Of a DNA stretch of 64,000 bases, positions 1,252 through 61,618 are shown one piece after another. The position numbers and the translations under genes are program-made. Location of the stretch: NCBI RefSeq assembly GCF_963169125.1, contig NC_084796.1, forward strand, positions 87,156,888 through 87,220,887, in the 5' to 3' direction. Source of the DNA: Humulus lupulus (Eukaryota; Streptophyta; Magnoliopsida; Rosales; Cannabaceae). How positions within the stretch are numbered: the first letter of the stretch is position 1; each line of letters begins with the position of its first letter. The notes below the pieces were generated by a model. That model worked only from the letters and a program-made list of their open reading frames with translations. It made no database searches and had not been told where the DNA came from.

Positions 1252-1256
1252 AAAAC
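1252..1256. repeat. Target site duplication, left of element A (AAAAC)
   Basis: These five bases directly precede the 5' LTR of element A and are repeated exactly at 12923-12927 after the 3' LTR. A 5-bp duplication is normal for plant Ty3/gypsy integration. Confidence 0.85.
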
Positions 1257-1845
1257 TGTTATCCATAAAATTAGCATTGATGACGTGGCAAGTAATCCCT
1301 GGACACGTGGCTGACACCTGGAAGCGTCTGCTAGAGTATCGACCAGAGGACACATTAGAAGCAGTGTAAGCCTGTCTTACCCACGACCAGTCTGGTCGAT
1401 GGTTCCGTGTACAAGGCGACATTTATGGGAAGATCTTTATGAATCCCGAATTTATCTCATACAATCTTCTGGGTATTTGATTATTCAGGAAAGAATATCT
1501 GTAACAATCTTTTGTAATCCCCCTTGAGCCTATAAATAGCAAGAGATAGCTCAAGGGAGGAGACTTTTTGCTTTTGAATCACTTGAGACTATAGTAATTC
1601 TCCTAGTAAACTTGTATCGTTCTTCAGAGATTAGTGAAACTCATTGAACCCCAGTTCTTTGATCACTCTTCTGATTTTTATATCAATATCATTCTAAGTG
1701 GAAGTAGGTCATTACCAGATCCTGGGGCCGAACCACTATAAATTGCTGTGTCTTATTTACTTTTGTCATTACGTTCTTCTCATCTCTTTCATTCATATCA
1801 AGCATATTTTGACTCCGTGTCAGTTGGCCAAATCTTGGGTCAACA
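1257..1845 (+). repeat. 5' LTR of element A
   Basis: Starts TGTTATCC and ends GGGTCAACA. U3 holds two ACGT-core boxes (TGACGTGGCA at 1281-1290 and ACACGTGGC near 1303). A TATA box (TATAAATA, 1531-1538) lies in the loop of a perfect 9-bp inverted repeat. The 3' copy at 12334-12922 keeps all of these. Confidence 0.95.
1521..1557 (+). promoter_or_regulatory. Core promoter of element A inside an inverted repeat
   Basis: TATAAATA at 1531-1538 sits between CCCTTGAGC (1521-1529) and GCTCAAGGG (1549-1557), a perfect 9-bp inverted repeat. The same arrangement is at 12598-12634 in the 3' LTR. Transcription would be expected to start about 30 bp after the TATA box, just past the right arm. Confidence 0.75.
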
Positions 1846-1848
1846 TTC

Positions 1849-1867
1849 TGGTGCTTTCGTTGAGAGC
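1849..1867 (+). other. Primer binding site of element A
   Basis: TGGTGCTTTCGTTGAGAGC begins three bases after the LTR, and its TGG would pair with the CCA end of a tRNA. The same site with one base changed (CATTG for CGTTG) is used by elements D and E. I cannot name the tRNA with confidence. It is not the initiator Met site used by copia elements. Confidence 0.8.
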
Positions 1868-1893
1868 TTGATTTATCGTCGTTGAGAAAACTA

Positions 1894-4833
1894 ATGGCAA
1901 AAGCTGGAAGGAAAACTGGACAGGCGGCCGCCGCTGCACCGTCAAACCCGCCACCTCCTCCTCCTCCTGCGAGCATGGCGGAGGATGAGCCACAACTGGA
2001 CTTTGAAGAGGAGGAAATGGATGATACAACGCTGAAGAGTACTCTGGGCGCGTTGCAGGAAGAGCTGGCTAATTTGAGAGCCAGTCAGGAGACTGCCGCT
2101 GAAGTTATGGCGCGGCAGCAGCAGGAGATTGAACGGTAGCGTGCAGAATTGAGCTAAAGGCAGGCGGAGGTGGACCGCTGCCGGAACGAAGCCATGGCAG
2201 CCCTTGAAGCAGCCTTGCTATTGGCCAGAAATCAGACTGCACCTGCCTCGCAGCCTGACCAACCGGTGAATGGGCCACCCCAAAGGGGTCCTAATCCGAG
2301 CCCACCGATCCAGCCTTCGAGTCCGCAAAGGCCCGAGCAGCCTCAGATGCCCCATGACGATGTCCCACAGGATCCTGAAGCACACCCACCATCCCAAGCT
2401 GCTTGGGATAACCCCCCGCAACAGAGGCAGAATAGGGTCGAGCATCAGCCTCACGGCCCTAGATGTCGTAGGGATGATGGGTCGAACCTACCGAACAGAG
2501 GTCAATACCCTCCTGGCAACAGGAGAGATTCAGAGTTAGGCTCTGCGGTCCGGGGCCCCCCACGGCACGATGATGCACGGGGACACCACGACCAGCACAG
2601 GCCATCCTCTAATGCTCGGGATGGTTCAGCTAGGAACGGACCTCGAGGGAATAGTCGATCTCACCATAGCCAGTCGAGGTTCAGAGATGGCCACGGATAC
2701 GATGAGGCCGACTCAGGCAAAGGAAATGCCGGTGGGAGGAATAGAGAAAGAGGTAAAGGCAGAAGCCAAGTACCTTAATATGACCAACCAAATGGACAGA
2801 ACGCTGGGGGGCAGCCCAGACAAAATAATGTCTTCAACCGACTCGGGGGTAGCGAGCAGCGGAGAAGAGACGAGGATTTAAGAGACGTACTCAACGATCA
2901 CCACGAGCGGCACGGCGAGAACATTCCCCCAACAACAGAGGCCACAGCAATTCCTACCGCAGTGCAGGCCCAGATAGACGCCCTCAACCAGGCTGTGCAG
3001 CAACTGGTCGGGGGAAGGACTTCATACATCGACCAAGATAGGAGGAAAGGCACTCCTTTCGTACAAAGGATAGCTAACGCCGAAACTCCCAGCAAATTCA
3101 AGATGCCTACACTTCCAAACTTTGACGGGTATGGAGACCCAGTCTCGCACGTCAATAAGTTTGAAATTCAGATGGATATTCAGAAAGTGTCCGAAGACGC
3201 TCGGTGCAGGATCTTCCCTGCAACACTTTCTGAAGCTGCACAGGAGTGGTTCTTTAATTTCCCTCCCGCGAGCATTGTTTCCTGGGAAATGTTCGTACGG
3301 GAGTTCTACGGACAGTTCTATGCTGGTCATGTGCACCCAACCGAAGCAAACTAGTTAGTCAAAATTCACCAGCAGGACGGAGAGTCGGTAAAGGATTACG
3401 TCCAGCACTTTATGCGAGCGGCGGCTGGAGCAAAAACAGTAGGAGACGAAGGCAAGATGATGGCCATTACCGCAGGGGTTAAACGTTGCTCTCCCCTCTG
3501 GAAAAGTCTCCGAAAAGAAGGAGTGAGAACTACCCAAGAATTCTTAGACCGAGCTGACCGCTACATCAAGCTCGAAGAAGCCATTGCTGATGATGGAAAA
3601 CCCTCGAACAAGGGTAAGAAGGCTGCCGAACCCGCCAAAGCCGCCAATGGTTCCAAACCTAATGGCAACGGCAAAGGCAACGGGAACGGCAATGGTAATG
3701 GCAAGAATGGTGGAAAACGGCCGTATAACGAGCCTTCCACCTCCGACAACAAACGAGCTAAGGGTAATCGTTATGAGCCTCGGTTCACTAACTACACTGC
3801 CCTCGTTGAGTCTCGAGGAGAGGTTTACCAGTCCACAAGCTCCAGTGTGCCATATAAGAAACCTGGACCCATTCGGAAGGACATTTCAAAAAGAGACACT
3901 ACCAAGTTCTGTCGTTACCATAACGACTACGGACATGACACTAATGAATGCAACCAGTTAAAAGACGAAATCGAGTTCCTTATTAGACAAGGACACTTGA
4001 GAAGATACGTACGGGCCTCGGGAAATTCCCAACGAGAAGCTCCAGGTGGCAACGAGCAGGCGTCCACACGCCAACGCTCGCCACCATTACAGCCTGCCCC
4101 CGTGGCTGGAACACTCTTAACCATCTGTGGAGGCCTGCACCTCATGGGAAACAGCGGAAAAGCTAGAGAACGATATGCTCGGATACTGCGCCACGACCAG
4201 GACATCAAGATGATGACTGTGGAAGACCGTGCACCAAAAAAGGCTCGGTCAGAGGAAGGTGAGATAACCTTCTCTGATAGCGATGCCCAACACGTCCGAT
4301 TCCCACATTCTGATTCGCTGGTCGTGGACATCCAGATGGCCAATATGATGGTGAAGAGAGTACTGGTCGATACAGGAAGTTCAGTAAACATCCTGTATAA
4401 GTCAACACTGGAATGCATGAAATTGTCCGTAAAAGACTTAGAACCCTACAATCAAACAATATACGGCTTCTCTGGAGAAGGACTCGCCCCAGCCGGAATG
4501 ATCAAACTCCCAGTAACGACAGGTACAGCGCCTGCAACAAGGACATTACTCGCCACTTTTGTAGTGGTCGATTGTCCTTCGGCGTACAACGCCGTTATTG
4601 GAAGGCCCATACTGGTTGATCTACGGGCCGTCATCTCTATGTGGCACCTAGCCATGAAGTTCCCAACAGACGCGGGGGTAGGACGTGTTTTGGGAAACCA
4701 AAGAGAAGCCAGGGAGTGCTACAATGCCTCGATCACAAAGGCGAAAAGCGGAACACCGAGGAGCACTGCCCCAGATAGATTGCAGATGGCAGTTGATGCG
4801 CAAGCCCAATCAGGTGATGAAGTCACCAAATAG
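1894..4833 (+). pseudogene. gag: Element A gag and protease
   Basis: Start of a single gag-pol frame that runs to 8142. ATG 1894 is the first in-frame ATG after the primer binding site. The product begins with a low-complexity, acidic, probably coiled-coil N-terminus and a long hydrophilic stretch. A retrotransposon gag domain follows (about 3110-3590), then an Asn/Gly/Lys-rich linker and a zinc knuckle at 3910-3951 with spacing C-x2-H-x4-H-x4-C instead of the usual CCHC. The aspartic protease has the active site Asp-Thr-Gly at 4369-4377. Gag would form the particle and bind RNA; the protease would cut the polyprotein. In-frame stops lie at 2137, 2152, 2776, 3352 and 4831, all explainable as C-to-T changes of Gln codons. 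The frame itself is not shifted. Confidence 0.9.
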
Positions 4834-4860
4834 GGTGTTGCCCAAAGTGAGGATGGAGAT

Positions 4861-6261
4861 TTGGATCCTCGCTTTGGGGATTTTGAAGAAAATGTTGGAC
4901 CCGTCGAGGACCTGGAGGAGGTCCAACTCGACAAAGAAGACCCAACCAGAGTCATAAAGGTTGGGAAAAACTTAGAGCCTTCCACAAAGCACGCCCTGGT
5001 GGAATTCTTGCGAGAGAACCAGGAAGTTTTTGCCTGGTCGCATAAAGACATGGTTGGGATAGATCCTGCAATAATCAGCCATGTCCTGAATATAGACAAG
5101 ACCTTTCCACCCGTGCAACAAAAAAGAAGGCTGCTCGATAAAGACAGATCACGAGCCTTAAAAGAAGAAGTGGAAAGGCTAAAGGAGAATGGATTCATAA
5201 GGGTGGCTTTTTATCCATCGTGGGTCTCCAACCCGGTGCTGGTCCCCAAGCCTAACGGCAAGTGGCGGACCTGTGTTGATTTTACAGACCTCAATAAAGC
5301 CTGTCCAAAAGACTGCTTCCCACTCCCAAGGATCGACCAACTGGTCGATGCTACTGCAGGGCACGAGATCCTCTCATTCATGGATGCATATTCAGGCTAT
5401 AACCAGATTAGCATGCATCCCCCAGATGAGGATCACACCAGCTTTCGGACCGATACGGGCTTGTATTGCTGCAGAGTAATGCCCTTCGGACTGAAAAACA
5501 CAGGTGCGACTTACCAACGGCTGGTCAACCACATGTTCAAAGAACAAATTGGAGTAAACATGGAGGTATATGTGGATGACATGCTGGTAAAGTCTAAGAA
5601 AGCAGAAGGGCATGTGAGGGATTTACAAGAGTGCTTTAATGTGTTAAACAAGTACCAAATGAAATTAAATCCCCTCAAGTGTTCCTTTGGAGTCGGATCA
5701 GGGAAGTTTTTGGGGTTTATCGTAAATTCAAGGGGAATCGAGGCCAACCCCGACAAGATAAAAGCCCTGATCGACATGAAGTCGCCAGAAAGGATCAAAG
5801 ATGTACAAAGTTTGACCGGAAGAATCGCATCCCTAAGTAGATTCATTTCAAAATCAACAGACAAGTGCGTCCCGTTCATCAATCTACTTAGGGGGAATAA
5901 AAAATTTGAGTGGACAGAACACTGCGAGCAAGCATTCCAGGCGCTGAAAGCTCATATGGCACAGCCTCCCATCTTATCAAAGCCGATCGAAGGAGAAACT
6001 TTGTTTATTTATCTAGCGATTACTGAAGTTGCCGCCAGCGCGGTGCTAGTGCGAGAGGAAGAGGGAGCACAAAAAGTAGTCTACTATGTCAGCAAGAGAC
6101 TGATCGGGGCAGAATTGAGATATCCACCAATCGAGAGGTTAGCATATTGCTTGATCCTTGCCTCTAGAAAGCTGTGCCCCTACTTCCAAGCTCATCCTAT
6201 CGCGGTTCTAACTGATCAGCCCCTTTGGCAAGTCCTCCAAAAACCCGAGGCGGCTGGGTGA
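4861..6261 (+). pseudogene. pol: Element A reverse transcriptase and first RNase H domain
   Basis: Continues the gag-PR frame after the stop at 4831. The RT palm and fingers run from about 5150 to 5800, with the ACPKDCFPLPRIDQLVDATA segment and the catalytic YVDD at 5569-5580. Connection and the RT-linked RNase H-like domain follow (about 5930-6255, with YYVSKR and TDQPL motifs). This part would copy the genomic RNA into DNA in the cytoplasmic particle. The segment ends at TGA 6259-6261, where D and E have an Arg codon, so the stop is most simply a CGA-to-TGA change. Confidence in the domain calls is high; activity is not expected. Confidence 0.92.
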
Positions 6262-6672
6262 TTGTTGAAATGGGCAGTCGAGTTAGGGCAGTTCGACATA
6301 ACCTATTCACCACGAGCAACAGTAAAAGGACAAGTCTTAGTCAATCTTATTGCAGAATTCATCGAACTCCCAGATAGCGAGCAGTGCGAACAGCCTGAAG
6401 CGCCCGGGCCTCAAGAAAAAACTCCTTCGTGGAAGCTATTCACGGATGGTTCATCCAACGAATCCCACGCTGGAGCGGGAGTGATATTGATAACGCCAGA
6501 AGGGCATCGATTTCACTACGCCATCAGGTTCGACTTCACTGCATCAAACAATGAAGCAGAATATGAAGCACTCCTCGCTGGATTGAGGATGGCAAAGGAT
6601 ATGAGCATAAAGACGCTTGATATCTACAGTGATTCACAGCTGGTGGTGAATCAGGTCCTTGGAGAATATTAA
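6262..6672 (+). pseudogene. pol: Element A second (archaeal-type) RNase H domain
   Basis: In frame with the RT. A linker is followed by a separate RNase H fold: FTDGSSNE supplies the first Asp, NNEAEYEALLAGL the Glu and YSDSQLVVNQ the second Asp. Tat elements are known for such an extra RNase H downstream of the gypsy one, so the combination supports the lineage call. The TAA at 6670-6672 replaces a Gln codon that D and E still have at this position (GEYQARG). Confidence 0.88.
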
Positions 6673-6681
6673 GCGCGGGGT

Positions 6682-8142
6682 TTGAAAATGGTAGCCTACT
6701 TAAATAAAGCAAAAGACCTGCTAGCCCAGTTCACGAAGTACACCCTCCAGCAGATCCTGCGAGATCAGAATTCAAACGCGGATGCCTTAGCCAAACTCGC
6801 GAGCGCGAAGGATGCTGACACCTTGAACATTGTGCCAGTTGAAAAATTGAGTAAGCCGAGCATACAAGCAACTAAGTCCTGTATGGAGATTCGAATGGAG
6901 GATACATGGATGGTGCCTTACTTGGAGTATCTGACAAATGGTACGCTCCCAACAAACAGGAACAAAGCTAGAACTCTGCAAAGACGAGCTGCTAGGTACG
7001 TATTGGTCGATGGAGTTATGTACCGAAGAGGATTTTCAATGCCACTACTCAGGTGCGTTACGCCAGAAAAGGCTAAGGAACTCATGAAGGAGGTGCATGA
7101 AGGCTTCTGCGGGGATCACGCTAGGGGGCAGAGTTTGGCAAAAAAGATTCTAAGGCAAGGCTACTTCTGGCCAACGATGAACGAGGATTCGATGGAGTAT
7201 GTACGAAGATGGGATAAATGTCAAAGGTTCTCCAAGATTCCACGAGCAGCTCCAAACGAATTGAAGTAGATGCAAAGCCCATGGCCTTTTGCAGTATGGG
7301 GGATAGATTTGATTGGATCCCTGCCCACAGGGAAAGGCGGAGTAAAGTACGTAGTTGTGGCAGTTGATTACTTCACCAAATGGGCCGAAGCTGAACCACT
7401 CGCAACCATCACGACCAAGAAAGTTCTTGACTTCGTCATCAAGAACATTGTATGCAGATATGGTTTGCCCAAGAAGATAGTTTCAGACAACGGGACCCAA
7501 TTTGACAGCGACTTATTCACATATTTCTGCGAGAAGCATGGAGTTATTAAAAGCTTTTCTTTAGTTGCACACCCCCAAGAAAACGGGCAGGTCGAAGCCG
7601 TAAACAAGACTCTTAAAGACACCCTGAAGAAAAGACTTGAAGAAGCTAAAGGAGCGTGGCTAGAGCAGTTGCCTGAAGTCCTCTGGTCGTATAGAACATC
7701 TCGCCGTACAGCGACAGGACATACTCCATTTTCCCTAGCCTACGGATATGAAACCATGTTACCTGTCGAGTTAGATCCTCCCTCGCATCGGCGTTTGACT
7801 TACGACCAAGATCAGAATAGCCAACTAATGATGGAGTCCCTAGACTCAATCGATGAGATACGAGAGAAATCTCAACTCCGAGTTGGTGCATACCAGCAAA
7901 AAGTCGCCCGGTACTTTAACTCCAAAGTTAAAGAAAGAAAATTCAACGTCGGAGATTTGGTGCTACGACGAGTTTTCTTAAATACCCGCGACCCTACTGC
8001 TGGAGTGCTCGGACCTAATTGGGAGGGACCTTACCAGATTGAAGAAGTCCTTCACCTAGGCACATACAAAATTGCACGCTTAAACGGAGATCTCGTTCCA
8101 CGTTACTGGAATGGAGAACACCTACGCAAGTATTATCAATGA
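6682..8142 (+). pseudogene. pol: Element A integrase
   Basis: Same frame as the rest of pol. The tail of the RNase H region is followed by the zinc-binding HHCC domain (HEGFCGDH to DKCQRF, about 7090-7230). The catalytic core has WGIDLIG, SDNGTQFD and the Glu of ENGQVEAVNK (about 7305-7620), and the C-terminal domain has GPNWEGPYQ near 8015-8045. The protein ends KYYQ at TGA 8140-8142. A TAG at 7267 interrupts it between the zinc domain and the core. Integrase would insert the cDNA with a 5-bp staggered cut, which fits the AAAAC duplication. Confidence 0.92.
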
Positions 8143-8847
8143 ACAGTCCTTTTTAAAGAACTGGCTTGTGTTAAATTTTTTCTAATTTTTACAAGTTTTG
8201 CAAAGAGGGTTAGCCACGCTGTATGGCTAACTGCTCGTATATGTAAGGTTCTATTATAGAATCGCTCGTAAAGACATGTTTAGTCCATTTTTAATACGAG
8301 ATTATAAGGGACTGTGCGCAGCCAGTCATTCTTGCCAACCATTGTGAATTTACATTTACAAGTATTTGTTCATTACGTGTGTTGTTTTGCTGTATTACAA
8401 GTATCATTTTTCGCACGAATAGGAATGTTCGAACAGGCCACGGTCAGGGCAAGTGACCAAGGACCTAAAGCTCCTCGATCACTTTGGGAGCATATAAGGC
8501 ACATCGATAGCAAAGCATACTCGCAAGGTATGTAAACACATGAACAAAATGAGTGAAAGCATGCTACAATACTTAGAATATTTTTCAAAATTTATGTTTT
8601 GATTAAGTCATGCCAAAGTACTATGCTAAGTTCGGTCATACGGAAAAATGTTATAATAAATAAAGATATTATAGCATCAAGATTTAAGCTTTTACACCGC
8701 AAGCATCGCTGCTTGGATGTAACTGTTCGAGTAAAAGAAAAAAGGATTTACTGCCCGTGCAGCAAAGTTTAAAAAGAAATTATTTGTCTTTACACCACGA
8801 CCCGTGGGTCGTATAGCCAAAAAGAAAGAAAAAATAAAGGAGAAAGT
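8143..8847. other. Element A spacer between pol and the antisense gene
   Basis: About 700 bp separate the stop codons of the two convergent genes. It is AT-rich with several CTCG(T)A and TGCTCG tracts, but unlike the matching spacers of B, D and E I see no clear tandem array. It should contain the 3' ends of both transcripts. I cannot place poly(A) sites. Confidence 0.6.
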
Positions 8848-11493
8848 TTAAGAGGCATTTGGGGCCGAAGGGTCCTGGGCAGCATCCTGGTTGGTCGTGT
8901 CCTCGACAACTTCTTCTTCTTTCACACCAACGATGCTTGGAGAGGCAGGGATCCTCAATCTCGCCTCCTCCTCCGCCAGTTGGGCGGTGTAGCGAGCCAA
9001 CTCAGCAGCCCTGACTTCCTCCGAAAGATAGCTAAAGTCGGCACCCTGATTATGTTTCCAGAAGTTGTAGAAACATCGGAGCGTCGTCCTCTTGTACTTT
9101 TCAAGATTTTTGGAGTTGTCAAGCTCCAGCTACTTCACCTTGCCTCCAAGAGTGGCAATAGCCTCATCCTTGGACTTGAGTGTCTCTCCCAGATGCTTGA
9201 TCTCGCGAAGATGAGCTTGATTGAACTCTCGATACTCTTGCCTCAACTTCACGGCAGCATCTTTTGCTGCTTCAGCCTCTGACAGTTTGGTCACCGCAGC
9301 ATCCCTCTCTCGAGCCAGTGCCTCCAACTCTTTGGCGTGCCTGGCCTTGGCAGCCGAAAGCTCCTCAGCTGCCTTCACTTGATGACTCTCAGTGGCCTTT
9401 GCCTTGGCCTGCTCGATGGAAGCCTGGATACGGGTGCGAGCAGTGATAGCAGATAGCAAAGCCTGTGAACAAAGGAAAAAGTCAGAGCCTGCCGTGAAGG
9501 ATAAAAGACTAAGGTCTAAAAAAGTGAAGAAGTACTCACACTGGAGATTTCATTCAGGGCCCTATTCAGAACCTGGTCAGCCCCCAAGTTTTCAGCCTCG
9601 ACCATTGCATCCCTGACACGGTCACCTTTGCCAATGCGGTCAAAGCAATCCCTGGCTGATCGAAGGGTGCGGCTCATGAGTTTAGCCCCGAGAGCTTCGT
9701 CACGAACAATTTCATCTCTGGAGGGTGCAGCCGGAGGATTCGGTGGGGCAGGAGTAGTCCTCTTCTCAGTTGAAGCTGGTGGATGAGTTTGCCCCGTTGG
9801 CCCAGGAGTCTGCCCAGTTGGCGCGTCCTTGGGAAGGTCTTCTGTTCGACCCTTCTTGGCTGGAGGGCCTCGGCTGGATTCGCCAGTTCTCCTCTTGGAT
9901 CTCCGTTGGAGTTGGGGAACCTCCTCTTCTTCCTCGGCTTGGTACATGTCGAAGATATTGGGAGTAGCCATATCTGCATGCAAGTAAACACAGGAAACTG
10001 ATAAGAATAAGAGGCAGATGAAAATATATTATATGCAACAAAAGAAAGGCAACAAAGTGAATACCCGAGCTACAACTACTGGTCGCTTCACTATTGACTC
10101 TATTAGTCATATACTCATTATCTGGCATGAAGAAGTCTGGCCCTAATTTTGGAGTATACGTAAAATTGCCCTCCCCATCGAACAAATGATAGGGAATTGG
10201 CAAACCATTTAAAAGTAAAATTGTGTTACCATTATCATCAAAGGACTCTCCCAAGTCCACAGCTGGTTCTTTGGCCTTTTGTTTCCCCTTGCCTTGGGGA
10301 GCAGAAGGCCTTTCTGCGGAAGGATTGCCCGTGGACTCCCTAATAGTAATCCCCGTTGGCCTCCTCCTCCGAGGAGACACGGGAAGTTGCTGCTTGGGAA
10401 CCCCCTCGGCAGTGGCTTCGTCCACCACGGACCCTCTATTTTCATGGCGAGGAGCCAAGAGGCCAGACCGCCTCAAGTTTTCTTCAGTCACCAGGATCTT
10501 GACGCTTTTTGCTGCGTCGGACATCCTGGCCAAAGTGTTAGACCTCAACACCATGTCTGGTGTTGGGGTTGGACGTAACCAAGGGCCTGAAAAACATAAT
10601 ATGGTTTAAGAACAACGAAAGGAGACACCTTGAGTAAAAGTATCAACCAGTCAGGAACGGTGCTTACCTCCTCGTACGAAGGCCAGGTTGTAGCTGGATA
10701 TGTCCGGGGTGAGGAAGTACTCCTTATTATATTGCCCCACGTTCGATATGTGTGTTGTGTCACTCAGGAATGTTTGACTGGTTTCCTGGTGACAAAAATG
10801 GAAGAAACCCTTTTCGTGTTGTTGCGGGTTAGACTTGAGGTCAAAGAGATAGTTGACCTCGTGGGGCGAAGGTTCTGGCCATTTCTTAAGTTTATACAGG
10901 ATATAGAGTGCGGCCAGCATTCTATATCTGTTTGAAGTTATTTGGAAGGGGGCGACACCAAAATAATTGGCCACCCCCACAAAAAAGGGTTGAAGAGGGA
11001 GATAAGCTCCCGCCTCAATATGATACCGAGACCAGGCGCTGTTGACACCTCCGGGGAGGTTAGCCCTCTGGTCTGCGGCAGGTTGTATAATGGAAACCCC
11101 TGTGAGGGGGAATTTTCTGAAGCAGTTAGCAATCATTCGAAGAGTTACTGAACTGGCGGGGGAAGTATACCACTCGACATCAGGCAAGTTCTGATGCCGA
11201 GGGCTGGCCCTAATTTGGATATTAGGGTCAGGAGCAAGATTTTCTCGACCACTGGTCGAGGGAGCCCTTGCCTGCGAATCAGGACGGGCAGGAGAATTTG
11301 GGTTGTTTTCAAACTCGGGTCTTTTCTTGCCTGAAGATTTGGAACGGGCCATTGAAGGAGAAGGATGGGATCTAGAAGAGGATCACGAAAAAGGGATCTC
11401 CCTGACACAGTCAGCTGGTTGATCTTCTCCCTCGAGCAGTTGGGCGAGAAGGTCGTCGCCAATAGGCCTTTCACCTCCCCACAAATCTGGCAT
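8848..11493 (-). pseudogene. Element A antisense gene (aORF), four coding exons
   Basis: Spliced gene opposite to gag-pol. Exons: 11493-10668, 10586-10065, 9973-9540 and 9462-8848. Each intron begins GTAAGC, GTATTC or GTGAGT and ends CAG, and the intron phases are 1, 1, 0. About 798 codons. ATG 11493 is preferred to 11352 because the peptide after it (DLWGGERPIGD) is also found in F. Exon 1 carries a domain resembling Pfam PF04195 (GAYLPLQPFF, GVAPFQI). Exon 2 has LPIPYHLFD, shared with F. Exon 4 is coiled coil followed by FYNFWKHN. Stops at 11383 (TGA) and 9130 (TAG) are both C-to-T type. Function unknown; extra ORFs of this kind are known in Tat elements. Confidence 0.85.
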
Positions 11494-11499
11494 TAAAAT

Positions 11500-12101
11500 C
11501 TACATACAGAAGAATGGGGAGGTGAGGATAGAAAACTTTTAAAAGCTTTTTAGAATAACGTTGGTCGAGTATAAAAATTAAGTTTTTATACAACAGCATT
11601 CTAACAAGAAGCTAAATCTTTCTACACGAACATTTTGAAAAACGGATCAAAGGGTGAAAGTAAAAAGTTTTTCTGAAAAAGCTTTTTCAACTCCCCTTAG
11701 GGCGGGAAAAATTTATTTTTCAACTAGCCTAAAGATCGAATTTTTACTTCGATTTTATGTTCTAAAAAGCATGATCCTGGATTTTAAACTAACTCGTAAC
11801 TCTACTTTGCCTACAAAACATTCTGTTTACAAGTACCTCAAACCAGAAACCGATAATCTCAAGCAGTCCACATTCAGAAGCATGCACCACGAAAAATTAG
11901 AAGCATGGGATTTCGAAAACTTACCAAGAAGAGTGATCATGGAGGTGGAAGAAAGGTCTTTGGAGATCAAGCTCACAGTCTGAGTCTTGGAAGTGCAGGA
12001 AAACGGTCTCCAGGAAAGTTTAAAACTCTGGTTTTTAGGGTTTCTTGCAAAAACAGTGGCGTGCGTAAAAAGAAAAAGGAGGCTTCGAAGGTCTTATATA
12101 A
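11500..12101 (-). promoter_or_regulatory. Promoter, 5'UTR exon and 5'UTR intron of the element A antisense gene
   Basis: Read on the minus strand, CTTATATAAG gives a TATA box (12095-12101). About 170 bp downstream a strong donor (G|GTAAGTTTT) ends a non-coding exon at 11925. The acceptor TGTATGTAG ends the intron at 11500, six bases before the ATG at 11493. The 425-bp intron has counterparts in B, D, E and F at the same place. Confidence 0.65.
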
Positions 12102-12320
12102 GTTTGTCTCTGACATTAAAAAGTGTAATCATTAGTTTTCCTTTTTCAAAGTATCGGGAAACGCGATGGCCATCGAAATCATTTCTGGGGAACCGAGAGG
12201 ACATGATTAGACAGAAGTGGGTTACTTTTTTCAAGAACACACGAAGGTATCTAACACGTCAGGCGGGGTTACCGAAGAGTCGTTCGTCCAAAATTTTATT
12301 TACTGCTCGTGATAAATAAA

Positions 12321-12333
12321 CTTGGGGGGCAAA
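12321..12333 (+). other. Polypurine tract of element A
   Basis: CTTGGGGGGCAAA lies directly before the 3' LTR and would prime plus-strand DNA synthesis. The GGGGG-C-A core is shared with B, D, E and F. Confidence 0.85.
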
Positions 12334-12922
12334 TGTTATCCATAAAATTAGCATTGATGACGTGGCAAGTAATCCCTGGACACGTGGCTGACACTTGGAA
12401 GCGTCTGCTAGAGTATCGACCAGAGGACACATTAGAAGCAGTGTAAGCCTATCTTACCCGCGACCAGTCTGGTCGATGGTTCCGTGTACAAGGCGACATT
12501 TATGGGAAGATCTTTATGAATCCTGAATTTATCTCATACAATCTTCTGGGTATCCGATTATTCAGGAAAGAATATCTGTAACAATCTTTTGTAATCCCCC
12601 TTGAGCCTATAAATAGCTAGAGATAGCTCAAGGGAGGGGACTTTTTGCTTTTGAATCACTTGAGACTATAGTAATTCTCCTAGTAAACTTGTATCGTTCT
12701 TCAGAGATTAGTGAAACTCATTGAACCCCAGTTCTTTGATCACTCTTCTGATTTTTATATCAATACCATTCTAAGTGGAAGTAGGTCATTACCAGATCAT
12801 GGGGCCGAACCACTATAAATTGCTGTGTCTTATTTACTTTTGTCATTACGTTATTCCCATCTCTTTCATTCATATCAAGCATATTTTGACTCCGTGTCAG
12901 CTGGCCAAATCTTGGGTCAACA
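12334..12922 (+). repeat. 3' LTR of element A
   Basis: Same length as the 5' LTR (589 bp), with about 13 substitutions and no length change by eye. The TATA box is at 12608-12615 inside the inverted repeat 12598-12606 / 12626-12634. Confidence 0.95.
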
Positions 12923-12986: not shown

Positions 12987-15709
12987 CTACTTAGCCTTCT
13001 CAACATCCTCCTTGGCTCTCTCTGCCTCCTCCCAAGCAGCCTCCTCTGCGTCGAGCCGAGCCTGCCATTTGGCCACGAGTTCTACCTCGAAAGAGCCTAG
13101 GAAGCTGGTATCAAGATCGGCATTACTGGCCCAAATCCTATACATGGCCAGGTTGACCACCCAATCCTTTTTCTCCTTAAACTCTACGAGGCGACGAGCC
13201 TTTTCGCTCTCCCTTATCTCGAAAGTGGTCACTTTCTCCTCCTCAAGCTTGGCATTGATCTTCTTAAGCTTGGCTATCCTGGCCTTCATCTGGTCAGCTT
13301 CAGCTTCCATCTTCGCCTTTGCAACCTTATATTCATCAGTAAGCTTAAGCTGAAGATTCTTAGCCTCTTGGGCATAGGACATGCTCGAGTGGACCTCGTT
13401 GCTCATCTTATAGTTAAGCTGAGCAACGGCAGCAAGAGACTGAAACACAAACAAAACCAATTAGAACACATGCTAAGCATAAGTACAATAAATGGTAAAG
13501 TGAGAGAAATTACCACAGTAGCAAGCTCGATACTCTTGTCATAAAGGGTGTTGCAGTCCCGAGCATTGTTCAAAAACTGCCACTGGGGAGCCTCGAAGTT
13601 GCTGATACTCTGGCCTACTCGAGACAAGATGTCCGAGCCGAGAGTAGCTCCATGAGTCCCAGCGGCGCTGTCGACGACATACTCATCAACATGAGTAGAA
13701 ATCGACAACAAGCGCTCTTTCGACGCTGGCTTCTTCAGAGGAGGGCCGAGAGTTGGGCGGACCATGATAATAGGAGGCACATGAGGGGCATCTATGGTGG
13801 AAGCTTTGACCTGGGAAGCAGGGTCCATGGCTGAGCTCATAACAGTGGTCCGCTTAAGGACTTTGGCAGACCGATCTGACCTCAGCGAGCCCCTCGGGCG
13901 CTTACTCCTTTGAGCCCCCTCGCCACTGGCGAGCACAGTGTCGAGATCAGAGTACATGGCACCTGCATAGTTACACCACATTATAAGAAAATCCCAGACA
14001 TAAAAAAGTCAATACAATGCAGACAAGCACAGAATAAAAGACAAGTAAAGAGGAACCTAACTGGAACTCTCCCCCGAGCTCATGCTCGGTGACCACGTAA
14101 TTCCCCCATCTTTAGAAGAGGCAGGGGGAGTCGCTTCCCTATAAGTGGAAGTCAACCTCGAAAGGTCCCTATAATCATTTGTCTCGTTTTGAACGGCTAT
14201 TCCGTCCCATACCTCGTTCAGGCTATACATGGTATCGTATTTCCCTAGCCAACTATCGAACCTATGTACTCTCTCATCCACCCAGGACCATACATAAAAG
14301 TGGTCCTTATCATCTTCACACAAGACTAATTTGTCTGGCTTATGCTTAAGTAATGAGGGAGACCATAAGTCTGAGCTAAGGATGACTATACCTCTGTCGC
14401 TCAATCTTGAGGCATCGTCATTGGCCTCGTTCCCTGATTGCGGACTCCTGGGATGTCGAGCTAGAGGTTGTGGCTTAAAATTGCGCCTCGGAGGGAGGCT
14501 GCTAGTTGGGAGAGGCATGAACTCCCACTTGGTATATTTCTTGATGGACTAGTCATTTGTAGACTAACCCTTTTCTAGGAGGCCACAAGCTTGAAGCATA
14601 TCTTCATGAAGAAGATAGGAAAGGGAACGCCTACCGTAAGGTAATTGGAGCAAAGCCTCCTTGTGTTATTTCATCTTCTTGGAGGGAGTAGGCTGATGAT
14701 AATTGGCTGGAGAAATAAACATATCATGAGTGATTCGAGCATAAGCAAAAAATTTGAGCACAAAAAGAAGAGATTATTTATACTTACGAATTCGTCTGAA
14801 CGAATAGTATCTGGAAGGGGCCAGGCCATCTTTCCAAAAGAAAGCCTTCTTCAAATCGGGGGGATTGTTGGGTAAATCCTCAAAGATTTTCTTCTCCTTG
14901 GGATAGCTCGAAAGGTAGTAGAAGTCGTCCCCTCCCCGAGCTCGGTAGGGATTGCTTTTCAAGCAAAAGAGATGCAAGATCTCCTATGGTGAAGGTCCTT
15001 CCCACTTTAGCTCGTGGTAAATCGACCTCGAGGCTGAAAAAACCTTGTAAGAGTTGGTGTTGAACTGTAAAGGAGCAAGCCCGATGAAATCCAATAAGTC
15101 CTTGAAAAAGGACTTTAAGGGCAATAAAGCCCCTGCCTTCATGTGCTCCTGACTCCAAGTAGCATATCTTAGCTTGTTGTCGGGATTACCATTTCCCGGG
15201 GCGCGGCAGCTTCGCTCGTGGGAGGTCGGAGCTCGACACCTCAGCGAGCCCGACAGTCCAATATTATGGAAGGCCAAGATGTCAGAGATCTGCCCCAATG
15301 AAGAAACCGAGCTCCAGTAATGCTCGGCCTCAAAAAATTCTCTCTTCGAGGTGGAAATGGAGGTTGGCTGTGAGGTAGAAGGGAGATTTGATGGCTCTCC
15401 CATCAGTGAAAAATGGAGATCACCTGGCCTGAAGGTGACTGTCACTTTAAGTGTGGTATCGAGGGGGATTGGTCTAGGCTTGGGGTCTGGATCTGGGTAG
15501 ATGGCGACCCCAAGCCTCTTCCTTTTTCCTTCTTCGACCTCCTCGATATGACGTCAAAAGTGGGCTCGGGTGTCTTCTTGCTCACACCTTAGTTCGTGCT
15601 CCCGAATCAAGCGTTGATTCTGAGTAAAAGGTGACTCCGGGCTCAGAGTTACCGGTGAGTAAGGAATCGCGATTTTCGACCCCCACCGCTTTTCCAAATT
15701 CTGCGACAT
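12987..15709 (-). pseudogene. Element B antisense gene (aORF), four coding exons
   Basis: Exons: 15709-14788, 14706-14062, 13962-13514 and 13439-12987. Exon 2 is 645 nt, exactly as in E, and the intron phases are again 1, 1, 0. The donor after exon 2 is the weak GTTAGG in both B and E. The protein starts MSQNLEKRWGS right at the 5'UTR intron acceptor. The PF04195-like region has GALLPLKSFF and GLAPLQF. Exon 3 ends NTLYDKSIEL. Exon 4 is coiled coil plus MYRIWASN. Stops include 15554 (TGA) and 14984 (TAG, where E has CAA), plus more in early exon 2. The 5' two thirds matches E throughout, so the model is well supported although the copy is dead. Confidence 0.82.
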
Positions 15710-16413
15710 CTAACAAGAGAGAAAAAGGGTGAGGGTCAGACGGACAAGAATAATAGCAAAAATCAAAATAGTCTGAGCTCGAATGCTCAAGACTATGGAA
15801 CAAGCTTAATCATAAGAGCGAGATTAGGCTTATGGCGTGTATTCCACATAAAGGGAAAAATTGGATTTATTTTTTTTAGAATCCCTGATTTTCAGGGAAA
15901 AAAGTTGGCGATTACCCAAAAAGTGAAATTTTTGGGAAACGTGCAATTTGAAAACCCTAATCTTGTACGAGTTTCTTGGTCTACACGATACGATAGTTGG
16001 AAATAAAGATAACCCATTGAAATGCAAAAATTTGTGTTCAAAAAATCCTAACAGAAGAGCCTAAAAACTACATGGCATTGGTCGAAGCATTCTAGCATAA
16101 AACAAGTAAAATGTACATAAACGCTACTGCAACAGTAAACATGCATGGAAAGACATAACATATACACGAACATATGAGACCAAAAATAAATACTTACACA
16201 ATGAAGATGCTGGAAACAGAGAAATGGACGACTGGGAAGCGGCTACAAGAATGATCCCACGGAGTCGAAAAGGCCAAGCTTGTTTTGTCTTCTTGGTTTA
16301 GAGAACATGCAAAGAAAAAAAGAAGAAGTTCTCGGCTCTGGTTTTTTCTTTTTCTGAAACTTAAAGTAAGAATGAAGAGGAAAGGGGTGACACTATTATA
16401 TATATATATATAT
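15710..16413 (-). promoter_or_regulatory. Promoter and 5'UTR intron of the element B antisense gene
   Basis: On the minus strand a (TA)n tract at about 16394-16413 provides the TATA box. A non-coding exon runs to 16198, where TTCATTGT|GTAAGTATT is the donor. The intron (16197-15710) ends CTTGTTAG immediately before the ATG. E has the same donor context (TTATTGT|GTAAGTATG) and the same acceptor position. Confidence 0.65.
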
Positions 16414-17518: not shown

Positions 17519-17520
17519 AT

Positions 17521-24440: not shown

Positions 24441-25367
24441 AAAGAACCATCTTCCAGAGTAAAAAAGAATCACCCTACTGACCTCATTCTTGGAAATATG
24501 GAAGAAAGCATGGTTACTCGAAGAAGGTATGCAAATTTGGTTCTATTTTCATGTTTTACTTCATCTTTTGAGCCTAAAAATGTGAAGGAAACTTTGACGG
24601 ATGAATCATGGATTCATGCAATGCAAGAGGAGTTGGATCAGTTTTCTCACAATGAAGTTTGGACTCTTGTTCCTAGACTGAGCCATGCCAATGTCATTGG
24701 AACAAAATGGATATTCAAAAACAAGAGTGATGAATTTGGCACCATTGTGAGGAACAAAGAAAGATTGGTGGCTCAAGGATACACAAAAGTTGAAGGTATT
24801 GATTTTAATGAAACATTTGCACCAGTGGCAAGACTTGAATCCATAAGGTTACTTCTATCTATTGCTTGTGTTATTGGATTTAAATTGCACCAAATGGATG
24901 TTAAGTCCACTTTTTTAAATGGCATTTTGAATGAAGAAGTTTTTGTTGAGCAACCTAAATGGTTTGAGGACCCTCATTTTCCTAACCATGTTTACAAATT
25001 AGACAAAGCATTATATGGTTTTAAACAAGTTCCACGAGCTTGGTATGAGCGTTTAACTCAATTTCTAATTTCACATGGTTATCAAAGAGGTAGTGTAGAC
25101 AAGACACTGTTTATCAAAAAAATGAATTATGATGTTATTGTTGCTCAAATTTATGTTGATGATATAGTCTTTGGCTCTACATCTAACTCTGAAGTGCAGG
25201 TTTTTGTTCAGCAAATGCAAGATGAATTTGAAATTAGTATGGTAGGTGAACTCACCTATATTTTGGGTCTTCAGGTTAAGCAATCTGAGGATGGTACTTT
25301 TGTTTTGCAAAGTCAATATGCAAAAAACTTGGTGAAAAAATTTGGTCTTGAAAATGCCAAACATACC
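24441..25367 (+). pseudogene. pol: Element H reverse transcriptase, N-terminal part
   Basis: Typical copia RT: EPKNVKETLTDESWIHAMQEE, then NEVWTLVPR, GTKWIFKNK, LVAQGYTKVEGIDF, ETFAPVARLESIR, MDVKSTFLNG, ALYGFKQVPRAWYERL and the catalytic YVDD at 25152-25163. The frame is intact up to the insertion of element D after 25367, and continues at 37883 once one ATACC copy is removed. This is the best preserved part of the element. Confidence 0.93.
25363..25367. repeat. Target site duplication, left of element D (ATACC)
   Basis: Exact match to 37883-37887 after the other LTR of D. Removing D and one copy restores the RT reading frame of element H across the junction, which confirms the insertion point. 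Confidence 0.92.
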
Positions 25368-26101
25368 TGTTGACGCGGTTCTTCGGCAACAGGTAATTAA
25401 GAGGAGAAGAGAAAGAGATTAGCACTCAAGGTAGAACCGTCACAGATATGAAATCTTATATAATGAACTAGGTGACTCAAGACACGTTTTTAAGTGGTTC
25501 GAAGGTTAAAATCCTTCTACTCCACTAGTCAATATTATTCATCCTCTCTAGGTATTTGGTTTACAAAGTATATAGTTCTTCAAAGACTATTTTTCCCAAC
25601 CCCTATCAACTCCCAGGGTCTCCATATTTATAGGAGAAGGCACCTGGAAGTTGGTAGGGAGGTCATCCCGTGACCTTACCATTTGTCATATCAACTCTGT
25701 GGCATTCATGATTAATTCCTAAACCTGACACATAAGTGTGGTCTAATCAGCATGGAAGGAGATAATGGGCCGCACGGCCCAACCCATCCGTGGGTGTCTG
25801 ACACGCACGTTCCTGCTGCGTGTCCGAGAAGTCAGGGGGATATCAGACACGTGATGTCAAATATATGCACGTTTATCTTGCGTGCGTTGACTTCATAAAG
25901 GCTCAGAGCTTCCTGGGCTCCTCGTGACACGAACAGCTCGTATTACGAGCTGTTCTCCTGGCGTGACCTTCTGATGCCCCCTCTCGAGCTGAGAAGATCC
26001 GTCCTGGAAATAGGATCTTCTTCCTGTGGGCACCTCGGACTAAACTTGATTAGTCCGAGGCTCGTCCTGCTAATCAGCCCGTGGGAAAATCAGGGCGTAC
26101 A
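25368..26101 (-). repeat. 3' LTR of element D
   Basis: On the plus strand it runs TGTTGACGCGG to GGGCGTACA. The minus-strand TATA box (TATAAATA, 25625-25632) lies between inverted repeat arms 25607-25617 and 25643-25653 (one mismatch; perfect in the other LTR). The terminal TGTTGACG is followed by CGGCAACA, forming a short stem at the U5 end. Confidence 0.95.
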
Positions 26102-26113
26102 TCTGCCCCCCAA
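26102..26113 (-). other. Polypurine tract of element D
   Basis: TTGGGGGGCAGA on the minus strand, directly next to the 3' LTR. Same core as in A. Confidence 0.82.
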
Positions 26114-26351
26114 GCTCTTGCTCGTGGTATATGACGTCATATATAGGAGATCACAGTAGGGGCTTTTAGGCTTCCCCCACAACCCTTCGCATTCCATTCT
26201 CTTCACAGGCGTCTGATACGTGGAACGTCGTGGGTGGCGACGGTACACTCTACGAGAACCGCATTAAATGGCCTAGCCTACTGACCAGCCGTCGTTTCAC
26301 ATTTCGAGTGGAGGGTCTCCCAAGAGCCTTTTACACGTGATCCATCCCTTG

Positions 26352-27077
26352 TATAAAAAAGGGGGTGGCCACCCTACGCACGGGCCATCTTATCATTAAA
26401 AAATTTCTCAAATTTCCTTCTTCCTTCTCTGACTTTCTGAAGGACGAAACCCTCATCTCTGCTGTTTTCATCTTCTCCGTTCACGAAGCCTAAGCGTATG
26501 AGTTTCTTCAAAGCCTTGGAAGCCACTGTACCAACGAAGCTCCTACCAGCGCAGCAATCTCGCTCACCATCCAGCCATACACTGTAAGTTTTCTGACCCA
26601 GTTTATTTTGAAAGCATGCCACTGTAGCTTAGGTAAAAAATTTCACTGTAGCCACATGCAGGGGTTTTCTGGGTTGCGTGGATATGGAGGGTGACAGCCC
26701 TTCTTAGATTAGGGCACGCCTGTTGCAGGAAATCGTTTTAGAATATGGGTTTCAAGGTGTTTCTTCAGGGACAATTTCTGGGTAGGACCTTTAGGAATTT
26801 TGGGTGCAAAACTGGGTAGCTTAGGGAATACGCCTCAAAAGCGATTTTGCAACGTTTTGCCTGTTGAAACTTTCCCCCCAAGGCAAATTTTTACTCTGAG
26901 CCCCCTGACAACGGAATTCCGAGTAATCTGGGATCTGTTGAGGGTATAGGCGCGTGTTCATTGAACCGCGTGGTTCCACTCTCCACGGGCTGGGCTTACC
27001 CCAGCTCGTGTAACTAATACTTGCTTCATCCTTCTGCTTGGGTCGCCTTTTCTAAAGTGTTTTCTTTTGTTCGATAG
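26352..27077 (+). promoter_or_regulatory. Promoter, 5'UTR exon and 5'UTR intron of the element D antisense gene
   Basis: TATAAAAAA at 26352-26360 is a strong TATA box. A CT-rich leader from about 26385 ends at the donor ACT|GTAAGTTTT (26584). The 494-bp intron ends TTGTTCGATAG at 27077, and the ATG follows at 27086. A second TATA-like site next to a TGACGTCA palindrome (26132-26146) lies closer to the LTR and could be an alternative start. Confidence 0.7.
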
Positions 27078-27085
27078 GCGACAAG

Positions 27086-29697: not shown

Positions 29698-29845
29698 GAT
29701 GCTTCTCTTTGGGCATTTTGAACTATTTTATTTTCCATTGTAATTTTTTCATGAGGTGTTTCCACCTTGAGACAATTTGCTCAGCAACTTTAACATATAT
29801 ATATATTTTATATGCTTTTGGCTACAATTCATCTCTTTATTTTTA
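29698..29845. other. 3' flank of the element D antisense gene
   Basis: AT-rich, with a TTTTCATGAGG and (TA)n tract. Likely holds the poly(A) region of the antisense transcript; no gene. Confidence 0.5.
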
Positions 29846-30760
29846 TGAACTTAGTTCGGGTTAACCGTTATTTATATCTCGGGCTTTTAAAGAAGAGCCA
29901 CAATCAAAGTTAAAGTTAACCCCTAAGTTTTATGACCTGGTTAAAACCAGGAACTTATTTTGAAAACTTAGTTCGCGTCAACTTTTATCCATATCCCGGG
30001 CTCTTTTAAAGAAGAACCGCGGTCAATAAATTTTAGTTAACTTCTAAGTTTTATGACCTGGTCAAAACCAGGAACTTATTTTGAAAACTTAGTTCGCGTC
30101 AACTTTTATCCATATCCGGGCTCTTTTAAAGAAGAACCGCGGTCAATAAATTTTAGTTAACTTCTAAGTTTTATGACCTGGTTAAAACCAGGAACTTATT
30201 TTGAAAACTTAGTTCGCGTCAACTTTTACCCATATCCCGGGCTCTTTTAAAGAAGAACCATGGTAAATAAATTTTAGTTAACTTCTAAGTTTTATGACCT
30301 GGTTAAAACCAGGAACTTATTTTGAAAACTTAGTTCGCGTCAACTTTTATCCATATCCCGGGCTCTTTTAAAGAAGAACCACGGTCAATAAATTTTAGTT
30401 AACTTCTAAGTTTTATGACCTGGTTATAACCAGGAACTTATTTTGAAAACTTAGTTCGCGTCAACTTTTATCCATATCCCGGGCTCTTTTAAAGAAGAAC
30501 CACGGTCAATAAATTTTAGTTAACTTCTAAGTTTTATGACCTGGTTAAAACCAGGAACTTATTTTGAAAACTTAGTTCGCGTCAACTTTTATCCATATCC
30601 CGGGCTCTTTTAAAGAAGAACCACGGTCAATAAATTTTAGTTAACTTCTAAGTTTTATGACCTGGTTAAAACCAGGATAGGACTTAGTTTGTGATAACTC
30701 TTATCCATAGATAAAAATTAACACCTAAGTCGTTAAGGAGACCTGGTTATATCCAGGTAC
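29846..30760. repeat. Tandem array, period 120-121 bp, seven clear copies
   Basis: Marker GACCTGGTT at 29934, 30055, 30175, 30296, 30417, 30538 and 30659 gives periods of 121, 120, 121, 121, 121 and 121. Each unit holds CTTAGTTCGCGTCAAC, ATATCCCGGGCTCTTTTAAAG, TTTTAGTTAACTTC and a small hairpin, CCTGGTTAAAACCAGG. The inner copies are nearly identical and the first is the most diverged; a degenerate eighth copy runs to about 30760. Tandem arrays at this site are known in Tat elements and can seed satellites. Confidence 0.93.
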
Positions 30761-30796
30761 CATATGCCCCTCAAGTAACTGGGCCTTACAAGTGGA

Positions 30797-37093: not shown

Positions 37094-37126
37094 AGTTGGA
37101 TGTTTGCGGTAGTACTAATCGAACTT

Positions 37127-37145
37127 GCTCTCAATGAAAGCACCA
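37127..37145 (-). other. Primer binding site of element D
   Basis: TGGTGCTTTCATTGAGAGC on the minus strand, three bases from the LTR. Identical to the site in E and one base different from A. Confidence 0.85.
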
Positions 37146-37148
37146 AAC

Positions 37149-50698: not shown

Positions 50699-50963
50699 TC
50701 TTGCCCCCTCAAAAGTATTTGTTCGAATCCTAAGAGAAGGAAACTTTTGAACTACTTTCCTCGGGAACCATACCGTCATACATTTTTTGAAAATGGACAC
50801 GCGTCAGCCAGGTATTGCTCATTTTTGGTACTTGAGTACCTTGGAAACATGCCCACGATTATCCGTCTGCGACCTTTTCGGCGCCATCTTGTCATTGATC
50901 CCCATCCGTTGGATCTAGCAAGGATTTCATTCAACGCCCCGGATTAATCCCCCTTTTTCCATC

Positions 50964-61573: not shown

Positions 61574-61599
61574 GACTTTTTCAGGGATGAATGCTTAAG

Positions 61600-61618
61600 G
61601 CTCTCAATGAAAGCACCA
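61600..61618 (-). other. Primer binding site of element E
   Basis: TGGTGCTTTCATTGAGAGC on the minus strand, three bases from the LTR; identical to D. Confidence 0.85.

What the first reader, a model, noticed from the sequence alone, without database searches (positions are those of the whole stretch)
8848..11493. A spliced antisense gene with the same four-exon structure in five Tat-like elements
Seen in sequence: A (11493-8848), B (15709-12987), D (27086-29697), E (51692-54464) and F (44377-46974) each carry, opposite to gag-pol, a gene with three coding introns at the same positions. Intron phases are 1, 1, 0 in A, B, D and E. F has the same splice sites with one frameshift in exon 1. The proteins of A/F, B/E and D are strongly diverged outside short motifs, yet the architecture is kept. 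Known: extra ORFs, some antisense, exist in Tat elements. Inference: the gene was present, with introns, before the three families split, and the introns survive because they are on the strand opposite to the genomic RNA and are not spliced from it.
Basis: partly seen in the sequence, partly recalled or inferred. Interest (0 to 1): 0.9.

Follow-up and report, generated by a model that had tools for sequence, protein, structure and literature searches.

The report
Intron-bearing antisense gene in plant retrotransposons
Three families of plant jumping genes in this stretch carry, on the strand opposite to their usual genes, one accessory gene split by introns at matching places and kept under selection in its coding parts; it likely makes a spliced message for a predicted nuclear control protein, and being backwards likely lets the introns survive copying through RNA.

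Summary
Confirmed and extended. A, B, D and E each carry, antisense to pol and before the 3' LTR, a gene with three GT-AG coding introns of phases 1, 1, 0; F is a decayed relative of A. In further copies from the same genome (38 D-type, 10 A-type, 10 E-type), splice dinucleotides are kept at 339 of 348 sites, a retained intron breaks the frame in 173 of 174 tests, and codon-position constraint runs up to the donors, vanishes in the introns and resumes after the acceptors. dN/dS is about 0.15 (D type). I add a predicted 5'-UTR intron and TATA-like boxes in A, B, D and E, so the gene likely has its own promoter and five exons. Corrections: every window copy has in-frame stops, and F more than one frame change. 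Antisense TRP28 ORFs are known from Retand and Grande elements, and HTLV-1 HBZ is a spliced antisense retroviral gene; in the papers I could search, this gene is not described as spliced. No RNA data were available: splicing is inferred from evolution. The predicted product has roughly 800 residues: a diverged TRP28-like region, a basic segment and a coiled coil.

The parts
12093..12100 (-). A: TATA-like box of the antisense gene (TATATAAG), about 230 nt from the 3' LTR (12331-12922)
   Evidence: kept in 4 of 4 A-type copies fetched for it
11500..11924 (-). A: predicted 5'-UTR intron (donor TTG|GTAAGTTTT, acceptor TAG 6 nt before the ATG)
   Evidence: donor kept in 3 of 4 copies, acceptor AG in 10 of 10
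10668..11493 (-). A exon 1 (TRP28/PF04195-like region); one in-frame stop not seen in the 10 sampled copies
10587..10667 (-). A intron 1, phase 1, 81 nt
10065..10586 (-). A exon 2
9974..10064 (-). A intron 2, phase 1, 91 nt
9540..9973 (-). A exon 3 (Met codon next to the acceptor; basic, NLS-like segment)
9463..9539 (-). A intron 3, phase 0, 77 nt
8848..9462 (-). A exon 4 (coiled-coil-like, C-terminal FYxxWxxN...DFSY motif); one in-frame stop
15710..16196 (-). B: predicted 5'-UTR intron (donor TGT|GTAAGTATT; acceptor TTAG directly before the ATG); TATATATA tract at about 16411
   Evidence: window copy only
14788..15709 (-). B exon 1 (2 in-frame stops)
14062..14706 (-). B exon 2 (3 in-frame stops); intron 1 is 14707-14787, phase 1
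13514..13962 (-). B exon 3; intron 2 is 13963-14061, phase 1
12987..13439 (-). B exon 4; intron 3 is 13440-13513, phase 0
26352..26362 (+). D: TATA-like box, about 250 nt from the 3' LTR (25367-26101)
   Evidence: a TATAAA-like box in 24 of the 25 copies listed (29 examined)
26584..27077 (+). D: predicted 5'-UTR intron (donor ACT|GTAAGTTT, acceptor GATAG)
   Evidence: donor GT in 28 of 29 copies (one gap); acceptor AG in 27 of the 28 copies listed (29 examined)
27086..27758 (+). D exon 1 (TRP28/PF04195-like region)
27759..27849 (+). D intron 1, phase 1, 91 nt
27850..28578 (+). D exon 2 (one in-frame stop)
28579..28684 (+). D intron 2, phase 1, 106 nt
28685..29148 (+). D exon 3 (Met codon after the acceptor in 38 of 38 copies)
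29149..29235 (+). D intron 3, phase 0, 87 nt; many indels among copies
29236..29697 (+). D exon 4 (coiled-coil-like, FYHCWSHNPNADFSF motif)
50964..50971 (+). E: TATA-like box (TATATATA), about 266 nt from the 3' LTR (49902-50698)
   Evidence: TATATAT in 4 of 4 copies fetched for it
51184..51691 (+). E: predicted 5'-UTR intron (donor TGT|GTAAGTATG, acceptor CTAG directly before the ATG)
   Evidence: donor in 4 of 4, acceptor in 10 of 10 copies
51692..52577 (+). E exon 1 (TRP28/PF04195-like; one in-frame stop)
52663..53307 (+). E exon 2; intron 1 is 52578-52662, phase 1
53388..53866 (+). E exon 3; intron 2 is 53308-53387, phase 1
53937..54464 (+). E exon 4 (coiled-coil-like, MYKLWADNADLDTSF motif); intron 3 is 53867-53936, phase 0
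44377..46974 (+). F: decayed copy related to A; GT-AG introns at 45214-45293, 45834-45913 and 46312-46395
1253..12922 (+). element A (LTR matches 1253-1845 and 12331-12922, 97.6% identical), pol on +
25367..37882 (-). element D (LTR matches 98.8% identical), gag and pol on -, nested in element C
49902..62418 (-). element E (LTR matches 97.6% identical), gag and pol on -

Best explanation
It is one accessory gene on the strand opposite gag-pol in Retand/Tat-type LTR retrotransposons, divided by three coding introns at conserved positions and under purifying selection in its four coding exons, and it likely is transcribed from its own TATA promoter beside the 3' LTR, spliced from a predicted five-exon transcript and translated into a predicted nuclear regulator of the element. 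Shown by sequence: the exon-intron structure, its conservation within and between families, the codon-level constraint, and TATA-like and 5'-UTR splice motifs at matching places in A, B, D and E. Inferred: that the RNA is made and spliced; that the product (TRP28-like region, basic segment, coiled coil, C-terminal YxxWxxN motif) acts in the nucleus on the element's DNA or RNA; and that the introns persist because the sense genomic RNA carries only their reverse complement, so no spliced form passes through reverse transcription.
For: Splice models with phases 1,1,0 in A, B, D and E. Splice dinucleotides kept at 223/228 (38 D copies), 56/60 (10 A) and 60/60 (10 E) sites; in D, 0.92-1.00 per site against 0.81 for any intron-internal dinucleotide. 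Codon-position-3 excess in the spliced frame has p < 0.05 in 11 of 12 exon tests. Pooled variable sites by codon position 1/2/3.050/.022/.178 in the 60 nt before donors.185/.167/.139 in 36 nt inside the introns.044/.056/.206 in the 60 nt after acceptors. dN/dS in four D-type pairs: 0.04-0.07, 0.21-0.25, 0.23-0.31 and 0.17-0.22 for exons 1-4; B against E: 0.09, 0.17, 0.34, 0.21. Distinct indels in D copies: 28 in 2328 exon nt (14 multiples of three) against 27 in 284 intron nt (6 multiples of three). D exon 2 has no in-frame ATG in its first 20 nt in 38 of 38 copies although first codons after acceptors are constrained. By the script's count on aligned columns, 5 of 38 D copies have all four exons open and all six splice dinucleotides. 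5'-UTR intron and TATA-like motifs. Pol domains of the Ogre/Retand kind. Exon 4 is similar between families (A/D 4e-8, D/E 5e-8).
Against: No RNA evidence. E exon 4 shows no significant periodicity with 7 copies (p = 0.29) and A exon 2 only p = 0.024. No fully open copy among the 10 A-type or the 7 non-mosaic E-type copies. Exons 2 and 3 barely align between the A, D and B/E families. In A and E copies an ATG lies about 30-35 nt into exon 2 (10 of 10 each), and exon 3 starts with a Met codon, so inner starts are possible. PF04195 stays below its cut-off. The upstream scans that found the TATA boxes and donors also listed other TATA-like and GTGAG/GTATG sites. A genome pattern search for a spliced exon 1-exon 2 junction of D found none, so no retroposed cDNA supports splicing. 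The AlphaFold model of exon 1 failed (pLDDT 41), so DNA binding is not supported here. Two of three protein searches found nothing; the third found one hop gene model.
Confidence: 0.85

Rival explanations
1. The antisense pieces are separate genes: a TRP28 ORF (exon 1) and one or more coiled-coil ORFs, each translated on its own, as an ORF survey would draw them.
For: Vicient 2025 used ORF Finder and counts TRP28 and Smc-like antisense ORFs separately (PMC11963269). A Met codon follows acceptor 2 in all five window copies and in 38/38 D, 10/10 A and 10/10 E copies; A and E copies also have an ATG about 30-35 nt into exon 2.
Against: D exon 2 has no in-frame ATG in its first 20 nt in 38 of 38 copies; codon constraint, pooled over families, reaches within 60 nt of the splice sites and is absent in the introns; splice sites are conserved; the frame is coherent at all three junctions in A, B, D and E although intron lengths mod 3 differ.
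Confidence: 0.07
2. The protein is a by-product and the antisense transcript itself is the functional part, controlling the element through double-stranded RNA.
For: Proposed for antisense ORFs in plant LTR elements (PMC7264820, section 8 read).
Against: dN/dS of 0.14-0.16 over all four exons in four D-type pairs, with conserved splice sites and phases, is selection on a protein. Both roles could hold at once.
Confidence: 0.05
3. The gene is a host gene captured backwards together with its introns, and its product has a host-derived role rather than an element-serving one.
For: TATA-like boxes, a 5'-UTR intron next to the start codon and short GT-AG introns look like an ordinary plant gene. 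An antisense capture would keep introns.
Against: No free-standing homologue was found here, and Vicient 2025 reports none for TRP28 outside TEs. Long retention with low dN/dS argues for service to the element. As an origin alone it is compatible with the best explanation.
Confidence: 0.03

Closest known systems
Retand-lineage antisense TRP28 (PF04195) ORFs (Vicient 2025, PMC11963269; parts 1-3 of 5 and term passages seen)
   Same: Same kind of element, same place and strand, TRP28-like region; Smc/coiled-coil antisense ORFs are also reported.
   Different: Found there with ORF Finder; the word intron occurs 0 times in the main text. Here the pieces are exons of one gene with conserved phases, a predicted 5'-UTR intron and a promoter motif.
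Grande gene23 of maize (Gomez-Orte 2013; not read, known here through PMC7264820 and citations)
   Same: Antisense gene between pol and 3' LTR, own promoter upstream, nuclear protein.
   Different: Introns are not mentioned in the passages and sections seen; sequence relation to this gene was not tested.
HTLV-1 HBZ (PMC1459196, passages seen; bZIP from the listing)
   Same: Spliced antisense gene near the 3' LTR of a retroelement; nuclear regulator.
   Different: One intron of 1400 or 1540 nt, first exon in the LTR; no sequence comparison was made. Here three coding introns and a promoter motif inside the element, outside the LTR.
Ogre gag-pol intron (PMC6317226, passage seen)
   Same: An intron in a Tat-clade element.
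   Different: That intron is on the sense strand and spliced from part of the transcripts; here the introns are antisense.

Membership tests
Retand lineage of Tat Ty3/gypsy elements | aRH domain between RH and integrase | tested here: met
   ORF pieces only: A RT-RH, then RVT_3 fragment just under its cut-off, H2C2, rve; D RT, RVT_3, H2C2, rve (RH not hit in the pieces given); E RT-RH-RVT_3 in one ORF (integrase piece not submitted). The same order also fits Ogre
Retand lineage of Tat Ty3/gypsy elements | long pol-3'LTR region with antisense ORF | tested here: met
   A: pol ORF ends 8142, LTR match starts 12331, gene antisense between; D and E likewise
Retand lineage of Tat Ty3/gypsy elements | RT places the element in the Retand clade | not tested
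   no reference RT set was fetched
TRP28 / PF04195 Transposase_28 | score above the Pfam gathering cut-off | tested here: not met
   19.3-24.1 bits against 26.2 in A, B, D and E exon 1, at a consistent position; F fragment no match: a diverged relative, not filed as a member
Grande gene23-like accessory gene | own promoter upstream of the antisense gene | tested here: inconclusive
   TATA-like boxes between 3' LTR and exon 1 in A, D and E and upstream of exon 1 in B; transcription not testable
Grande gene23-like accessory gene | nuclear protein | not testable with these tools
   only a basic segment in exon 3 of A, B, D and E (6-10 K/R in 20 residues)
HBZ-type spliced antisense retroviral gene | antisense transcript experimentally spliced | not testable with these tools
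   no RNA data; resemblance in arrangement only

The most novel reading that the evidence does not exclude
A whole lineage of plant retrotransposons carries an ancient, promoter-bearing five-exon gene that has passed through reverse transcription ever since before its families split, because its introns exist only on the antisense strand; the introns also serve as joints at which families exchange protein modules.
Probability: 0.6. Interest if true: 0.86.

Novelty: new variant of a known kind. Interest (0 to 1): 0.74.

Why it matters
Retroelements are expected to lose introns when they copy through RNA. A gene with conserved introns that would evade this by lying antisense could explain why ORF surveys see several antisense ORFs instead of one gene, gives a full predicted protein (775-845 residues in the window copies) whose function can be tested, and bears on the open question of where the TRP28 gene came from: it looks like a complete Pol II gene, not a stray ORF. 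Annotation that looks for single ORFs in transposons would miss such genes.

Tried and rejected
Start of A at 11352 and a conserved upstream ORF in A/F: rejected; the family reads open from 11493 (9 of 10 copies).

Long open frames as intron loss: five copies with unusually long exon 1 frames (472-529 aa) all keep intron 1 (5 of 5).

Spliced copies in the genome: a 36-nt exon 1-exon 2 junction pattern of D with up to 3 mismatches gave 0 hits. 30 of 38 fetched copies would have matched it had they been spliced. The tool warns that very common words may be skipped, and the genome-wide control with the unspliced pattern and a junction pattern for E did not complete, so the negative is weak.

Structure: AlphaFold of exon 1 with 5 sequences, pLDDT 41, so no fold search was made. 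Protein database: E found only a hop FAR1-like gene model that holds element exon 2/3 pieces; A and D found none. Other PF04195 lineages of the genome: the search did not complete. Between-family dS (A/E, D/E) is saturated in 7 of 8 exon comparisons.

Choice and rows dropped: copies were taken from lists of 150 best-scored matches (the 20 best of D after the window copy and 20 lower ones, 10 of E, 10 of A), not at random. L036 and L056 (truncated) were dropped from the D counts; L073, L078 and L079 (mosaic) from the E codon test, but kept in the splice-site and retained-intron counts. With those three kept, E exon 4 shows .26/.17/.42 by codon position (no test made).

Full report
What was checked. 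The window is G000:C4:87156888-87220887 of a 2.48 Gb assembly. The plant is not named; a 78% identical protein piece of 94 residues in hop (Humulus lupulus) suggests hop or a relative, which is inference. LTR pairs outline elements A, C, D and E; D lies inside C, and A appears to split B, since 561-1162 matches the reverse of E's 54553-55145. ORF pieces give RT, RNase H, a second RNase H (RVT_3) and integrase domains in the order of Ogre/Retand elements, though no single element showed every domain above its cut-off in the pieces submitted. The antisense genes of A, D and E lie between pol and the 3' LTR.

Gene structure. Reading each junction by hand gave four coding exons with GT-AG introns in A, B, D and E, phases 1, 1, 0, and spliced frames divisible by three. 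F shows the same six sites but is decayed, with at least two frame changes. Exon 1 resembles PF04195 just below the cut-off. Exon 3 has a Met codon within its first three codons and holds a basic segment; exon 4 draws only weak, mostly coiled-coil-type Pfam matches and ends with a motif shared by the families (FYNFWKHNQGADFSY in A, FYHCWSHNPNADFSF in D, MYKLWADNADLDTSF in E). Exons 2 and 3 barely align between the three families.

Copies in the genome. Exon 1 of D, E and A each gave 150 scored matches out of about 60,000 first-look candidates. From these lists I fetched 40 D-type copies (2 truncated, dropped), 10 E-type and 10 A-type. Splice dinucleotides are kept at 223/228, 60/60 and 56/60 sites. 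Retained introns would break the frame in 38, 37 and 38 of 38 D copies, and in 10, 10 and 10 of 10 for A and for E. By the script's count 5 of 38 D copies are open in all four exons with all six splice dinucleotides; none of 10 A-type and none of 7 non-mosaic E-type copies is fully open.

Selection. Sites that vary among copies fall preferentially on third codon positions of the spliced frame: all four exons of D (Fisher p 1.8e-24, 7.6e-8, 1.5e-4, 1.6e-7), all four of A (2.0e-8, 0.024, 4.6e-10, 2.2e-6) and three of four of E (1.7e-3, 8.8e-7, 7.0e-4, 0.29). Pooled over families, the pattern is present in the 60 nt before donors (.050.022.178), absent in 36 nt inside the introns (.185.167.139) and back in the 60 nt after acceptors (.044.056.206). 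dN/dS in four D-type pairs is 0.14-0.16 overall. Indels are about eight times denser in introns than in exons (27 in 284 nt against 28 in 2328 nt) and less often multiples of three (6 of 27 against 14 of 28). D exon 2 has no in-frame ATG in its first 20 nt in 38 of 38 copies (the window copy itself has one), which fits translation from exon 1; A and E copies do have an ATG about 30-35 nt into exon 2.

New parts. Upstream of exon 1 I found a predicted fourth intron: GTAAGT donors at 11924 (A), 16196 (B), 26584 (D) and 51184 (E), with acceptors 0-8 nt before the start codon, and TATA-like boxes 176-232 nt before the donors. In A, D and E they lie between the 3' LTR and exon 1. The scans also listed other TATA-like and GTGAG/GTATG sites, so this assignment is a prediction. 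In copies, donors are kept in 28 of 29 (D, one gap), 4 of 4 (E) and 3 of 4 (A). This fits the own promoter reported for Grande gene23 (PMC7264820, section 8).

Exon exchange. Three of the 10 E-type copies (L073, L078, L079) are 89-97% identical to E in exons 1-2 but, from about 15 nt into intron 2, belong to another lineage in exons 3-4. The splice phases match. This looks like module exchange between families with the joint in an intron; the direction is not known.

What it is. The most likely reading: an antisense transcript starts at the internal TATA box, is spliced four times and gives a protein of roughly 800 residues with a TRP28-like region, a basic segment and a coiled coil that acts in the nucleus on the element. 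The sense genomic RNA holds the reverse complement of the introns, which would not be spliced as such, so reverse transcription keeps them. Transcription, splicing and function are inferred; structure and selection are shown.

Against the literature. Antisense TRP28 ORFs are reported in 97% of Retand clusters, found with ORF Finder (PMC11963269; parts 1-3 of 5 read; intron occurs 0 times in the main text). A 2020 review by the same author and a colleague asks that antisense and spliced transcripts be looked for (PMC7264820; part 1 of 3, section 8 and passages seen; intron 0 times). My searches list no paper whose title or abstract start reports introns in this gene, but I opened only the papers named in this report and PMC12786077 (passages), and Gomez-Orte 2013 was not read. 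HTLV-1 HBZ is a spliced antisense retroviral gene (PMC1459196, passages), so the principle has at least one precedent; three coding introns kept across families, an internal promoter motif and exon exchange go beyond it. I therefore call it a new variant of a known kind.

Noticed in passing
L073, L078, L079 (E-type copies), from about 15 nt into intron 2: Exons 1-2 are E-like (89-97%) but exons 3-4 come from another lineage: an exchange of exon modules with its joint in intron 2.
   Followed up: partly
start of exon 3 in A, B, D, E, F: A Met codon lies within three codons of acceptor 2 in all five window copies and in 38/38 D, 10/10 A and 10/10 E copies, in an exon that barely aligns between families: a possible second start for a short coiled-coil protein.
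   Followed up: partly
26132-26139: TGACGTCA palindrome between D's 3' LTR and the antisense TATA-like box, present in the 27 copies listed of 29 examined.
   Followed up: no
P0001 (Humulus lupulus FAR1-RELATED SEQUENCE 9-like): A hop gene model begins with element exon 2 and exon 3 pieces (78% identical to E over 94 residues) fused to a FAR1-type protein.
   Followed up: partly
29837-30677: 121-bp tandem repeats just past the end of D's antisense gene.
   Followed up: no
17519-18791: Three direct repeats spaced by about 460 nt, right of B's antisense gene.
   Followed up: no
20034-42954: Outer element C (LTR matches 92.5% identical) hosts D; its own ORFs (21202-22491 and 23844-25373, 39876-41703 on +) and a 90-nt tandem duplication at 40411-40588 were not studied.
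   Followed up: no
D-type exon 1: dS in exon 1 (0.50-0.69) is about twice that of exons 2-4 (0.20-0.40) in four D-type pairs, as if exon 1 had a different history.
   Followed up: no
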